Of a DNA stretch of 64,000 nucleotides, positions 37,154-41,763 are shown in pieces. The stretch comes from Nodularia sp. LEGE 06071. GTDB lineage: Bacteria; Cyanobacteriota; Cyanobacteriia; Cyanobacteriales; Nostocaceae. The notes beneath the pieces are model-generated. The model made no database searches and was not told where the DNA came from. It saw only the letters and a program-made list of their open reading frames with translations. The stretch is taken from the NCBI RefSeq assembly GCF_015207755.1, contig NZ_JADEWH010000013.1:62001-126000 (forward strand), in the 5' to 3' direction. The position numbers and the translations under genes were made by a program. Each line of letters opens with the position of its first letter. Position 1 is the stretch's first letter.

Positions 37154-37288
37154 TGTTTTTTTCTCACGCAGAGGCGCAGAGGCGCGGAGAGTAAGAGATG
37201 AGAAGAGTGGAGTTTGTCTTTGGCATCGGGAATACCTTAATATACTAATTTTAATCAATGTACGTTTTTCGCCTTCAAGATACTTTTA

Positions 37289-37840
37289 CTAATTGGAAAC
37301 TGGTCGAGATGACTTAATAGTGACAATTAGATGAGAATACCAAGCAGTGAAAGATTCAATTATATATTTGTATGTTTGAGGTTTTAATCTGACTTCCTTA
37401 ATAGTTTGAGAAACTAACTCTTTCCAAATAAATCTTTCTTCTTCTTCTCCTTCAATAAGGAATGCTATTTCTCCATCAAATGCTTCAGAGAAACCAGGAC
37501 ATATACAGAATTTTCTATATTTTTGCTCCCGTTTTGCTAAATGCGAATAAGATGCCATATTATCATCGGAGTTATCACCGTAAATTGCAGAATTAAGAAA
37601 TTCCCAAACTTCTCCGGGAGTCATTTTCATCAAATTTGAATCTTGCCTTTTTCCGCATTCTGTTAAAGATATCTTAAAATTACTGTAAGGCAAATCTAGG
37701 ATTACTGTCTGTGAAAAATCTCCGATCACAAATCCTCCAGCCCAAAGAACAATATTTCCCAATAAGTAATCTTGTGGATCGCTTTCTATTTGATCTAACA
37801 AGCACTCTAAAGCCAATTCTTGTTTAACTCCGAATAACAT
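37289..37840 (-). CDS. Third gene of the unknown 3-gene unit; Imm42-like N-terminus
   Basis: A protein of 183 aa. The start MLFGVKQELALECLLDQ, followed by GNIVLWAGGFVIGD, resembles the first strand-helix-strand of Imm42-type immunity proteins, which begin M-hydrophobic-FG...A-hydrophobic-E. The rest is acidic with several aromatic residues and has no membrane segment. It follows the 247-aa gene by 25 bp and is probably in the same transcript. If it is an immunity-type protein it might neutralise one of the two upstream products, but this is inference. Confidence 0.65.
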   Translation of the reverse strand: MLFGVKQELALECLLDQIESDPQDYLLGNIVLWAGGFVIGDFSQTVILDLPYSNFKISLTECGKRQDSNLMKMTPGEVWEFLNSAIYGDNSDDNMASYSHLAKREQKYRKFCICPGFSEAFDGEIAFLIEGEEEERFIWKELVSQTIKEVRLKPQTYKYIIESFTAWYSHLIVTIKSSRPVSN

Positions 37841-37865
37841 AAATTATCTCTTACACCTAGCCCTA

Positions 37866-38609
37866 TTAAATTTTTTCAACCTTATATTTAAAAGCTGTGA
37901 AATAGTCTGTTAAACCTGGCGAAAAATCTAAACCCAAAGAATTGGTATCAATACTCAAGCTAGAAAATACACTCTTAGAACGAATATAGTTAACATCCCG
38001 CATTAATAAGCGGCGAATAATTTCCACATAATCAATATTTTGGATATCTTCGTCGGTGTGAATGGAAAAAACCGATAAATCAAGACACAAAACCCGATAC
38101 TTGCGCCGATATTTGATCAAAATTAAAGTATCAGCGTTGAGAAAATCACCTTTCGCTTTATATTTACTAATATACTTAGCAGCATTTTCTAATTTATCAA
38201 ACTGGGAAAGAACATCTTTAAACCATTGCGTCTCATCGGTTTGATAAGTTCCAATACTGTTATCACCTTGAAAGCAGCATTGATAATATAAAATTTCCAA
38301 ATGTCGGAAGTTCTCTGGTTTATCGCATCCCACAGATGTGAGATATTCGCGAAAGAAATTTAATCCCGATAAAAATCCCTTTTGAACAAAAAATTGACAC
38401 CAAGTATCAGCTATGTTTTTTTCTAGTTTACTGACTACTTTATCAACTATTCTATCTCGAATTTTAGAAAATCTCAGATATTTAAGTTCGTTGCGATATA
38501 AGTTTCCAAATTTTTGCTTGATTTGGTTTTGGTGAATGTAAGATAAAATCCCAATATTAAATCCTACTTCAAATAATCTTCCTAAGTCATCAGCTATTTT
38601 TGCTGTCAT
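37866..38609 (-). CDS. Second gene of the unknown 3-gene unit
   Basis: A protein of 247 aa, mostly helical in the first 150 residues. Residues 157-180 (LNADTLILIKYRRKYRVLCL then DLSVF) give a D160-(16)-D177-x-S pattern that loosely recalls a PD-(D/E)XK nuclease core with the last residues altered. No family is recognised. It lies 127 bp after the 1008-aa gene; that spacer contains a GC-rich dispersed repeat and an AGGACTAAAGTCCT palindrome. It is conserved in tandem with the third gene only by position. Confidence 0.65.
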   Translation of the reverse strand: MTAKIADDLGRLFEVGFNIGILSYIHQNQIKQKFGNLYRNELKYLRFSKIRDRIVDKVVSKLEKNIADTWCQFFVQKGFLSGLNFFREYLTSVGCDKPENFRHLEILYYQCCFQGDNSIGTYQTDETQWFKDVLSQFDKLENAAKYISKYKAKGDFLNADTLILIKYRRKYRVLCLDLSVFSIHTDEDIQNIDYVEIIRRLLMRDVNYIRSKSVFSSLSIDTNSLGLDFSPGLTDYFTAFKYKVEKI

Positions 38610-38637
38610 TTTAATTTATTCTATTATTTTTGTTTAA

Positions 38638-38735
38638 ACGAACCGCCAAGTCGCCCGCGCGCAGCGATGCCCGCAAGGGCTGTAGTACGCCAAGAAGGAA
38701 AGAAGAAAGGAAGTTATGAGAGGACTAAAGTCCTG
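38638..38735. repeat. Repeat fragment inside the 3-gene unit
   Basis: A GC-rich stretch containing CGCGCAGCGATGCCCGCAAG, in contrast to the AT-rich genes around it, plus the palindrome AGGACTAAAGTCCT. This is the kind of dispersed repeat found between genes elsewhere in Nostocales. Confidence 0.55.
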
Positions 38736-38736
38736 A

Positions 38737-41700
38737 CTACGAAGTTTGTTGCGGGGTTTGGAGGATGTCTCTGATGTAGGTTAAAAATGCTAAGGAGTTA
38801 AATTCTGCTGTTCCTCGACTATGTTTAAATAAAGCCAGTTCACCAATTGATTCATCTCCGATGAGATTTTGATAAGGATCTAATTTCAGTTCGATTTTAC
38901 CCGATTTTTCATAACGGGAAAAATGAAATAAGGTTAAGCATTGCAAAATCTCATTTTTTAACTGGCTTTGGTTGGAAATTAGTCCTCTTCTAATATCTTC
39001 GTCATCCAGTATACCTTTATAAATGTTCAATAATGTTGCGTAAGACATCACACCGTTATAGTTATTATCTTTAGAAACTGCGATTCCATTAAACAAGTTG
39101 AAAAATATCACAGATTGTTTATTGCTATCTTCTGCTAACTCGGTGAGTTCGATGGTATCTTGAATATATAATGATGTTGAGTTGATATTGTCTCCTACTT
39201 TGACTGCATAATATTTGTCAAAGAACATGGGATAAATTTTAATATCATCTCGTTCTGTTCTTAAAGCTGTAATCACATTTTTGGACATAAAAAATAGTCC
39301 ATCATCTTCGGTTTGAGTAATATGTAATGTGCTGCTGTAAGGAACTTTCGCTATATAAATAAAATGTCTATATCCTTTTTTATACAGTTTATCTACATTC
39401 TCGACTATGACGCTGGGATATTCAAACATATCTTGATGATCATCATAGTTCTCTGAGAATGTTTTTAATAATCTCAATTTCACTGTTTGCGGTTCAATTT
39501 GGAAATCTATAATTTCTCCCATCAGGTTAGATTTTTTTGTTTCGGTTCCCCATCTACTATCGCTGACTCGACTGGAAACTACAATAATCGCTAGTTTATC
39601 TAGTTCTTTAAATTCAAATTTATCTGGATTCTGTAAAGTAAATTTTTTGGGTAAGACAGAATACAAGGAACTTAAAGTGTTGAGAATTTTAAATTTATCC
39701 TTTGCAAAGGAAAACTCACTAATATCTATTCCCTGGGAGTTACTCCGAGATTTTTCGTTAAATAAATGGGATAATACACCAGTCAAGGAAATTATGAATT
39801 TTTCTATGGGTGCATCATCAGTTTTGTTTTTGAGGTGTATCTTCAACATGGGAATAAATAACTTTGACTGTTCTTCTAGCAAGACATACAAACAAACATA
39901 TGCTAGTAAACTGTAGGTGATTTTGTAAATAAACTCTTGATGAGAGTCTAGTTTTTCAGTTTCTGATTGATAAGGAAATATTAGTAAGTTACGCTGTGGA
40001 AAGTTGGCGTTATAAAATTTTTGGCATTTTTCATTTTTTGTTGGTAAAAATATTACGGGTAAAACACCAATATTCTGTTGTATATCATATTCGATGTTAA
40101 AGGTTTCTCTGTCATCAGTCTCTAAAAAGTTAATTTCGCTGATAGTCATTTTGGCTTGGAGACTGACAAGGGAGTTTGTCTGGGTGGTTGCTTCTCCTAA
40201 GTTGATGTATTTGAGACAATCTTTAGGATTTTTTTCTAACCCAGTTTTAAATAATGTATTTCTACCATCAATAGTATCGATATCATTTTCTAAAATACTA
40301 TATTTCACAGAAATATGTAGCGGATATTCTCTGCTAGGAAATTGAGTTTTACACTGGATGAGGTTTTGTAATACTTTTTTGAGTGTGTCGATTTTCTGTT
40401 GAACATTTACTTTCTTGAAACCTGCTATCCAACTTCTAAATAAATTTTCCTTCGCTTCATCATTACCACCCTGCAATATTGGTAGGATATCTTTTTCAAA
40501 TTTCTCCCTGGGATTATAGTTTAATTCATTTTGGGGGTGATAATTTTCATCTGAGGGATTTTCACGAGATGCAAATACAAAATAATACAATAATGCTATC
40601 TTTAAAACTTTATTAGCAAATATGGAGTTTCTAGATTCGTCTGCTATCTCTTGTTTATGTTCGTCACTATCTGGATTTAACAGATTGAGATTATAATCAA
40701 AGACGGTTCTACCTCCATAGGCTTGAACTTTACCATCAAATTTCAACTTGATACCAAAGACAAATTCTACTTTTTCTCCATATTCATCTTCTGTTTCTCC
40801 TAAGTAACCTGCGATAATAGGGATAATCGGAAGCATATCAAATGCTTCACTCCGAGAAAATATATTTTGGTAATTAACTTGTGTTTCCTGATAGTTAACT
40901 AAATATTCACCGTCTGCTTTACTGCTATCGTTAATGAAATCATCCAACAATTTCAATCTTCTGATTAAATCTGCTAAATATATTGTTCCTTTAAAGTTTT
41001 CATCACTAGCATTTTCGTTAACATTTTCGGAAAGAAATTCTAAATATCTAATCTTGGCTAGCCTTTTTAATTTACCTAATGTTTCTTGGTTAACCAGATT
41101 TTCTAATTTGTAGATATCAGAGTTACTATTCTCCTTTAAATTATCTAAAATATATTCTATATCTTCCCTCTCTGTGGAACTTGCAGCCACAAATTCCTTC
41201 TCTATATAGTTATTAATTCCCTCTAATAATTGTGAAGTAAAATCACGGGGTTTATCTACTGAAATTTTGAGTTTATGCGCTTTTAGTAATTGTCTTTGTT
41301 TGCCGTCATCTTTTTTAAGTGTTAATCGCTGTTTTTGTAAGTTTTCACTTTTAGGAAAGCTATATGTTAGGTTAAATTTTTCCGGTTTTCCGCGAAATGT
41401 CTGCAAATCACTGATGAGTTGTTTAATTAATGCAAATCTATCTGGAGAATCTGTCTTCTCAGAAATCTTGGTTAAGCTGTTCTGAATACAAGCGGTAATT
41501 TCTCTAATTTGTGCTGGAAATTTTTCTTGAGAACCAGAACTAAAGTTAAGGGTAGCTGTTTTGACTGATTTAGCGTTTCCTAAAGGACTGTCTACTTGTA
41601 AAGCAGCTATTTGAGTGGCTATTTTATTAATATCAATTAGTAGCCATTTATTGTTGTTACGGATTTCAAATATCTGTTCGTTTTTTAAAGCTTGTAATAT

Positions 41701-41763
41701 CTTGGTTAATAAATCAGTATAATCCACATTGGCTAAGTCGGGATTTGTTGTTATTTTATTCAC
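38737..41763 (-). CDS. Large protein of unknown function heading a 3-gene unit
   Basis: A protein of 1008 aa from a GTG start at 41763, about 36 nt after the likely transcription start. Residues 1-340 are charged and helical; residues 340-700 are mixed. Residues 722-1008 alternate strands and helices (AIIVVSSRVSDSRW, GYRHFIYIAKVPYSSTL, SVIFFNLFNGIAVS, LTLFHFSRYEKSG) as in Rossmann or RNase H/Piwi-like folds, but I find no DEDD/DEDH set, P-loop, DEAD box, HNH or zinc cluster. No signal peptide or membrane helix. It starts the transcript with a near-consensus promoter. Function unknown. Confidence 0.75.
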   Translation of the reverse strand: MNKITTNPDLANVDYTDLLTKILQALKNEQIFEIRNNNKWLLIDINKIATQIAALQVDSPLGNAKSVKTATLNFSSGSQEKFPAQIREITACIQNSLTKISEKTDSPDRFALIKQLISDLQTFRGKPEKFNLTYSFPKSENLQKQRLTLKKDDGKQRQLLKAHKLKISVDKPRDFTSQLLEGINNYIEKEFVAASSTEREDIEYILDNLKENSNSDIYKLENLVNQETLGKLKRLAKIRYLEFLSENVNENASDENFKGTIYLADLIRRLKLLDDFINDSSKADGEYLVNYQETQVNYQNIFSRSEAFDMLPIIPIIAGYLGETEDEYGEKVEFVFGIKLKFDGKVQAYGGRTVFDYNLNLLNPDSDEHKQEIADESRNSIFANKVLKIALLYYFVFASRENPSDENYHPQNELNYNPREKFEKDILPILQGGNDEAKENLFRSWIAGFKKVNVQQKIDTLKKVLQNLIQCKTQFPSREYPLHISVKYSILENDIDTIDGRNTLFKTGLEKNPKDCLKYINLGEATTQTNSLVSLQAKMTISEINFLETDDRETFNIEYDIQQNIGVLPVIFLPTKNEKCQKFYNANFPQRNLLIFPYQSETEKLDSHQEFIYKITYSLLAYVCLYVLLEEQSKLFIPMLKIHLKNKTDDAPIEKFIISLTGVLSHLFNEKSRSNSQGIDISEFSFAKDKFKILNTLSSLYSVLPKKFTLQNPDKFEFKELDKLAIIVVSSRVSDSRWGTETKKSNLMGEIIDFQIEPQTVKLRLLKTFSENYDDHQDMFEYPSVIVENVDKLYKKGYRHFIYIAKVPYSSTLHITQTEDDGLFFMSKNVITALRTERDDIKIYPMFFDKYYAVKVGDNINSTSLYIQDTIELTELAEDSNKQSVIFFNLFNGIAVSKDNNYNGVMSYATLLNIYKGILDDEDIRRGLISNQSQLKNEILQCLTLFHFSRYEKSGKIELKLDPYQNLIGDESIGELALFKHSRGTAEFNSLAFLTYIRDILQTPQQTS

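What the first reader, a model, noticed from the sequence alone, without database searches (positions are those of the whole stretch)
37289..41763. Three-gene unit of unknown function between trpE and purQ
Minus-strand genes of 1008, 247 and 183 aa share direction, with gaps of 127 and 25 bp and their own promoter. Neither of the two larger products shows a family I can name, in a window where nearly every other gene is recognisable. A very large protein, a mid-size protein with a faint nuclease-like pattern and an immunity-like small protein is a layout common among conflict or defence systems. The role is inference; the gene arrangement is seen.
Basis: partly seen in the sequence, partly recalled or inferred. 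Interest (0 to 1): 0.75.

Follow-up and report, generated by a model that had tools for sequence, protein, structure and literature searches.

The report
Broken Argonaute-like plus helicase gene pair
What looked like a three-gene unit is an old two-gene system of filamentous cyanobacteria, an Argonaute-like protein plus a helicase, whose helicase gene has been cut short here and patched with an unrelated immunity gene; intact copies are probably an uncharacterised guard against foreign DNA.

Summary
The three ORFs and both gaps are exactly as described, but they are not a three-gene unit.

(1) The 247-aa ORF is the first 243 codons of a ~1200-aa SF2 helicase ("B") that is intact in three sister genomes; its distal 958 codons are missing here.

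(2) The 183-aa ORF is an Imm42 immunity protein (E 2.2e-11) that came with the DNA replacing the lost part of B. Its best relative sits just behind an eCIS-core toxin-type gene in another genome.

(3) The 1008-aa protein ("A") has no significant family match by sequence. Its AlphaFold model matches Argonaute/PIWI proteins: by title, 34 of the first 35 Foldseek rows and 47 of 50 VIA rows.

A and B are a near-strict pair, often fixed behind purQ or pheT, also on conjugative plasmids. A distant A'B' pair lies intact elsewhere in this genome and on proteobacterial plasmids.

Best reading: an Argonaute-like/helicase system against mobile DNA, working like ApsAB or pPIWI-RE but laid out differently. 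Function is untested; this copy is probably dead or reduced.

The parts
38737..41763 (-). Gene A: 1008-aa Argonaute/PIWI-fold protein, apparently intact
   Evidence: ORF; family of homologues; AlphaFold2 pLDDT 78.7, pTM 0.68; Foldseek/VIA matches to Argonautes, most of them over about residues 546-998
37882..38609 (-). Remnant of gene B: codons 1-243 of a ~1200-aa SF2 helicase (N-terminal, possibly nuclease-like domain only)
   Evidence: 94-96% protein identity to residues 1-243 of B in the three sister genomes; DNA homology ends at 37882; B model and motifs
37866..37881 (-). Last codons and stop of the 247-aa ORF, contributed by the inserted DNA
   Evidence: Homology to the Imm42-bearing DNA of L096 begins at about 37890; alignment
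37289..37840 (-). Imm42 immunity-protein gene, probably an orphan (no cognate toxin beside it)
   Evidence: Pfam PF15593 E 2.2e-11, 44.9 bits against cut-off 27.2; 64% identical relative in G077 beside a toxin-type gene
37209..37881 (.). Replacement segment standing where three sister genomes have codons 244-1201 of B
   Evidence: Collinearity breaks at 37208 (L074, L075; 37204 in L076) and at 37882
38610..38736 (.). 127-bp spacer between A and the B remnant; holds a stretch of about 28 bp with no match in sister L074

Best explanation
The locus is a damaged copy of a two-gene system. Protein A has the MID plus RNase-H-like (PIWI) fold of Argonautes, and protein B is a large SF2 helicase with an N-terminal domain that carries a possible PD-(D/E)XK-like signature. 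Inferred mechanism: A holds a guide or target strand of incoming DNA, B is recruited, unwinds or translocates along that DNA, and the DNA is cut or degraded by B's N-terminal domain or a host nuclease. The result is loss of plasmids or other mobile DNA, as reported for ApsAB and proposed for pPIWI-RE. In this genome B lost its helicase part when a segment carrying the tail of a toxin-type gene and its Imm42 immunity gene replaced it, so this copy cannot work as the intact pair does. Shown here: the pairing, the truncation, the likely origin of the third gene. Predicted: the Argonaute fold, the helicase fold. Inferred only: nuclease activity, guide use, anti-plasmid or anti-phage role.
Confidence: 0.6

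Rival explanations
1. One reading: a self-contained three-gene conflict system of a large effector, a mid-size nuclease and an immunity protein.
For: Shared strand and short gaps; the third gene is a real immunity family.
Against: B runs to about 1200 aa in the sisters and in most relatives; Imm42 matched 4 of 150 genomes, this one included, and in the stretches looked at around the other three (L096, L097, L087, the last only 2.6 kb) no A or B lies beside it.
Confidence: 0.02
2. A and B form a housekeeping DNA or RNA maintenance pair of filamentous cyanobacteria (repair, replication or RNA processing) with an Argonaute-like scaffold; no defence role.
For: Fixed chromosomal position in two large groups, the purQ-linked rows forming one clade with 100/99 support; best SF2 fold matches include RNA helicases such as Brr2; purifying selection on A.
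Against: Absent from many genomes (94 of 150 relatives lack A; 249 of 291 across the phylum lack any B match); many broken copies; copies on conjugative plasmids; a distant pair on proteobacterial plasmids near nuclease, WYL and toxin-antitoxin genes.
Confidence: 0.2
3. A's Argonaute resemblance is only a generic alpha/beta plus RNase-H arrangement; A is an unrelated RNase-H-like or scaffold protein working with helicase B.
For: Low TM-scores, no profile match, catalytic residues not fully conserved.
Against: Nearly every top match is an Argonaute family member, the match covers the MID and PIWI regions in order, and a Q-G pair followed by a Lys is conserved in the region of the MID domain.
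Confidence: 0.15

Closest known systems
ApsAB anti-plasmid system (E. coli ST38; PMC11096173, passages read)
   Same: Two-gene operon of an SF2 helicase/nuclease protein and an Argonaute-like protein; the ApsB MID motif Y[X]3K[X]nQG[X]nK has its Q-G and a following Lys in A (Q677 39/40, G678 40/40, K706 40/40); the paper says ApsAB-like systems also occur in some cyanobacteria, and reports that apsAB was often inactivated in evolved lines.
   Different: In ApsA the nuclease motif is C-terminal (D...DVK), and the Argonaute-like gene was looked for downstream of apsA. Here the Argonaute-like gene comes first, the putative nuclease-like domain of B is N-terminal with D...(D/E)xS, and A has an invariant His (H666) but no Tyr-x3-Lys in the stretch before Q-G. 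ApsB was reported to lack the PIWI RNase H fold; the model of A aligns there with Argonautes.
DdmDE plasmid defence (known here only through the ApsAB paper's passages)
   Same: Helicase/nuclease protein plus Argonaute-like protein.
   Different: Not compared directly. That paper found no sequence similarity between ApsB and DdmE and no MID-like motif in DdmE.
pPIWI-RE gene triad (PMC3702460, passages read)
   Same: PIWI-type protein with an SF2 helicase and a restriction-endonuclease-fold partner.
   Different: The triad is three genes in the order REase, DinG-type helicase, PIWI. Here there are two genes with the PIWI-type gene first, and no pPIWI-RE Pfam model matched A or its relatives.
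Imm42 immunity proteins of polymorphic toxin systems (Pfam PF15593)
   Same: The 183-aa ORF is a member by profile score; its relative in G077 follows an eCIS_core protein.
   Different: No toxin gene beside it here; the G077 protein's C-terminal 294 aa gave no match in this genome (a search without a positive control).

Membership tests
Argonaute/PIWI superfamily (protein A) | MID plus RNase-H-like PIWI fold | tested here: met
Argonaute/PIWI superfamily (protein A) | Recognisable by sequence profile (Pfam) | tested here: not met
   No Piwi-type Pfam model at E up to 10 for A, nor at E up to 1 or 0.1 for relatives.
Argonaute/PIWI superfamily (protein A) | RNase H catalytic residues (strand 1, strand 4, final helix) | tested here: inconclusive
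   D735 near the end of strand 1 is 40/40 and H947 is 40/40, but no acidic residue is conserved at the end of strand 4 (residues 803-807). No structural superposition of active sites was possible.
pPIWI-RE system | REase, DinG helicase and PIWI genes as an ordered triad | tested here: not met
   Two genes, A before B, in 38 of 39 loci that hold both.
pPIWI-RE system | Conserved R and E of the PIWI beta-sheet extension; match to pPIWI-RE Pfam models | tested here: inconclusive
   No pPIWI-RE model matched A or relatives; R/E positions could not be mapped. The genome-wide search with PF13032 rang nowhere, controls included.
ApsAB system | SF2 helicase with C-terminal PD-(D/E)XK (ApsA) | tested here: inconclusive
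   SF2 core found; the nuclease-like pattern is N-terminal (E14, D156, D/E173-x-S175). The C-terminal 280 residues are poorly modelled and were not tested alone.
ApsAB system | Argonaute-like ApsB with Y[X]3K[X]nQG[X]nK MID motif | tested here: inconclusive
   QG and a following K conserved in A's own family; Tyr and first Lys not seen in that spacing.
Zorya (ZorD) | Full-length ZorD match | tested here: not met
   Only 45-46 residues of the 247-aa ORF at E 0.0061 and 0.032, 12.1 bits against cut-off 1500.
Imm42 | Pfam gathering score | tested here: met
   44.9 bits against 27.2.
Polymorphic toxin-immunity pair | Toxin gene next to the immunity gene | tested here: not met
   No toxin ORF beside it in the window; a toxin-type gene is present beside the G077 relative.

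The most novel reading that the evidence does not exclude
A and B are a separate, unnamed lineage of Argonaute-like/helicase defence: a long Argonaute-fold protein with a remodelled guide pocket and an incomplete RNase H site that hands targets to a helicase with its own N-terminal nuclease-like domain. It is held for long evolutionary times at fixed chromosomal sites in filamentous cyanobacteria while being repeatedly broken, and a sister lineage (A'B') travels on proteobacterial plasmids. In the window's genome the resident pair is broken while a distant intact pair, absent from the four other genus members searched, sits elsewhere.
Probability: 0.45. Interest if true: 0.75.

Novelty: new variant of a known kind. 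Interest (0 to 1): 0.6.

Why it matters
If the reading holds, many filamentous cyanobacteria carry an unrecognised Argonaute-type system that the sequence libraries searched here miss. It would give a further layout, beside ApsAB/DdmDE and pPIWI-RE, of an Argonaute-like protein joined to a helicase with a nuclease-like domain. It may also bear on why some of these bacteria are hard to transform, which can be tested by deletion. The locus is also a worked example of how a truncated gene plus a captured immunity gene can look like a new three-gene defence system.

Tried and rejected
Rejected: a three-gene system. Rejected: ZorD/Zorya membership (short, weak hits). Rejected as chance: SoDot-IcmSS on A (16.6 bits against cut-off 25); the mad8 and DinG hits on B, which fall on the P-loop ATPase region; Cas11a on A' (E 0.075). 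Searches that found nothing or chance only: A in phages; A against PDB sequences (none; profile A1 best E 0.14; C-terminal profile A5 best E 0.011 to a designed TIM barrel over about 30 residues); the 247-aa ORF against PDB (best E 0.26, ribosomal proteins over 18 residues); B profile against PDB (best E 0.052, RNA helicase MSS116); B N-terminal profile against PDB (none); pPIWI-RE PF13032 in this genome (controls silent, so uninformative); toxin C-terminus in this genome (no positive control). A recurrent third partner gene was sought in 27 loci: A recurs in 27, B in 25, and the next families are, by my reading, mostly neighbours of the pheT/bcp site. Enrichment near defence genes was not scored: no control set was run, so plasmid neighbours (DISARM near the pair in L098, HNH/WYL in L121, DUF4011 helicase in L119) are anecdotes. 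DdmD was not seen among the 50 VIA rows for B, which excludes nothing. Literature: seven searches were answered; no title or abstract start that they listed describes this pair under the terms used, and ApsAB came up. Supplements were not readable.

Full report
WHAT IS THERE. I call the first A. Gene names such as trpE, purS, purQ, pheT and bcp below are recalled from the sequences, not from a tool. The window is G000:C13:62001-126000 of a 5.58-Mb genome; the nearest named relatives of A come from Nodularia (90%) and Nostoc (75%) genomes.

THE MIDDLE ORF IS A STUMP. The 247-aa protein is 94-96% identical over residues 1-243 to the start of much longer proteins in the three sister genomes that have them. 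In those genomes (G001, G002, G004) the gene, B, is intact at 1201 codons; the fourth, G003, matches neither A nor B. DNA collinearity with the sisters holds up to window 37208 (37204 against G004) on the trpE side and resumes at 37882. Codons 244-1201 of B are therefore missing here and about 673 bp of other DNA stand in their place.

THE THIRD ORF CAME WITH THE PATCH. The 183-aa protein is Imm42 (44.9 bits against a cut-off of 27.2). Only 4 of 150 related genomes, this one included, have a match. In G077 a 64% identical copy follows, 16 bp behind, a 517-aa protein with an eCIS core domain (E 1.1e-27). The window DNA from about 37890 to 37319 is 77% identical to that stretch, and the similarity starts in the last codons of the toxin-type gene. 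So the patch is the very end of such a gene plus its immunity gene, and even the last residues of the 247-aa ORF come from it. The G077 protein's C-terminal 294 aa has no match in this genome (no positive control); one other eCIS_core protein is present on contig C5. The immunity gene is probably an orphan.

A AND B ARE A PAIR. Of 150 related genomes, 56 match A and 66 match B. Of the 56, 53 also match B and the other three (G034, G039, G069) have only fragments of A. Of the 13 B-only genomes, eight (G028, G029, G074, G076, G086, G093, G110, G140) have the distant type described below. The other five have partial pieces: G040 and G130 short stretches, G050 the end of B, G087 the end of B at a contig edge (so undecided), G133 a copy with stops. 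In loci L031-L073, 39 of 43 hold both genes; in 38 of the 39 A comes first on the same strand, L042 being the exception, and in L039 and L059 the two are 5.7 and 9 kb apart. The four without B are L033, L046 and L048, where the contig ends near A, and L064, where about 3.5 kb downstream of A has no B and counts against strict linkage. In 11 loci A and B overlap by 4 bp (L049, L051, L054-L058, L062, L063, L071, L072).

WHERE IT SITS. In 19 of 40 loci from the named-genome search the order is purS-purQ-A. In the tree of A (42 rows), a group of 19 purQ rows is one clade with support 100/99; it holds 17 of those 19 loci (L046 and L065 were not in the alignment) plus the window and L031, whose contig ends before purQ and which I placed there as a sister. 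In 9 of 40 loci, Microcoleaceae or unnamed relatives, pheT lies upstream, and in 8 of these 9 bcp lies downstream; three of them, and L054, have a second A behind B. A is also on six conjugative-plasmid records, five of them 46-47% identical and one 31%. Across 291 genomes drawn evenly from the phylum, 42 match B, 41 of them in the same order. The chromosomal copy is thus old and largely vertical, with a mobile branch.

IT BREAKS OFTEN. Besides this window, damaged copies include G079 (B keeps 86 codons, A has a stop), G017 (A and B with many stops), G069 and G034 (pieces of A), G133 (B with stops), G050 (end of B only), G136 (B in two pieces), G241 (B joined from 1-308 and 980-1202) and the similar L067. 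A itself still looks constrained here: dN/dS against sisters is 0.245-0.281, compared with 0.146-0.238 among sisters, and its distance to the outgroup G067 is no larger than theirs (dN 0.1496 against 0.1497-0.1527). Either the break is recent or A keeps some role.

A DISTANT SISTER PAIR. This genome also has an intact distant pair on contig C4: A' of 1062 aa and B' of up to 1338 aa. A' matches A in profile comparison (probability 94.9, E 4.7e-08, 19% identity). A' is in 13 of 150 genomes; the 11 with near-complete A' are the same 11 with the distant B match, and the other two (G032, G051) have fragments. Of the five genus members searched only the window's genome has it. The same pair, A' then B', is on plasmids of Cupriavidus, Acetobacter and two Acinetobacter, at 22-44% identity and in some only over part of the length. 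In the Acinetobacter records it is followed by a DUF4011 helicase matching PDC-S37, or by HNH and WYL genes.

HOW IT PROBABLY WORKS. Shown: pairing, truncation, patch. Predicted: Argonaute-like A, SF2 helicase B. Inferred: A holds a guide or target strand, B unwinds and B or another nuclease degrades invading DNA. The closest tested relative in kind is ApsAB: helicase-site mutations in ApsA and a MID-motif mutation in ApsB abolish plasmid destabilisation, a nuclease-site mutation has a partial effect, and no effect on eight phages was seen (PMC11096173, passages). The layout differs: gene order, position of the nuclease-like domain, MID motif. pPIWI-RE is a three-gene triad (PMC3702460, passages). 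I therefore say it works like these and do not file it as a member of either. The main rival is a housekeeping role, suggested by the fixed chromosomal sites.

LIMITS. Function is untested. The fold of A rests on one prediction. The ApsAB paper mentions cyanobacterial homologues that I could not check, so part of this family may already be listed there. The break in the window rests on one assembly.

Noticed in passing
L088:6800-14476 (G000:C4, about 295800-303475): Intact distant A'B' pair elsewhere in the window's own genome, absent from the four other genus members searched.
   Followed up: partly
L096:5087-7169 (G077): An eCIS_core toxin-type gene directly followed by Imm42, the likely kind of source for the patch in the window.
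   Followed up: partly
L119:14001-27199 and L121:11751-21351 (Acinetobacter plasmids): A'B' pair followed by a DUF4011/MTES_1575 helicase (PDC-S37 match) in one plasmid and by HNH endonuclease and WYL genes in the other; may be third partners.
   Followed up: partly
L098 (Nostoc plasmid pNPM2, 40000-70000): A divergent A-B pair about 9 kb from a DISARM cluster, with an integrase and other genes between.
   Followed up: no
L049, L051, L054, L058: Tandem A-B-A or A-B-A-B arrays whose two A copies fall in different branches of the tree.
   Followed up: partly
L067 and G241:C40: B with an internal deletion of about 670 codons removing the helicase core but keeping frame; similar end points in both.
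   Followed up: no
window 38656-38683: Short stretch in the A to B spacer that has no match in the sister locus L074.
   Followed up: no
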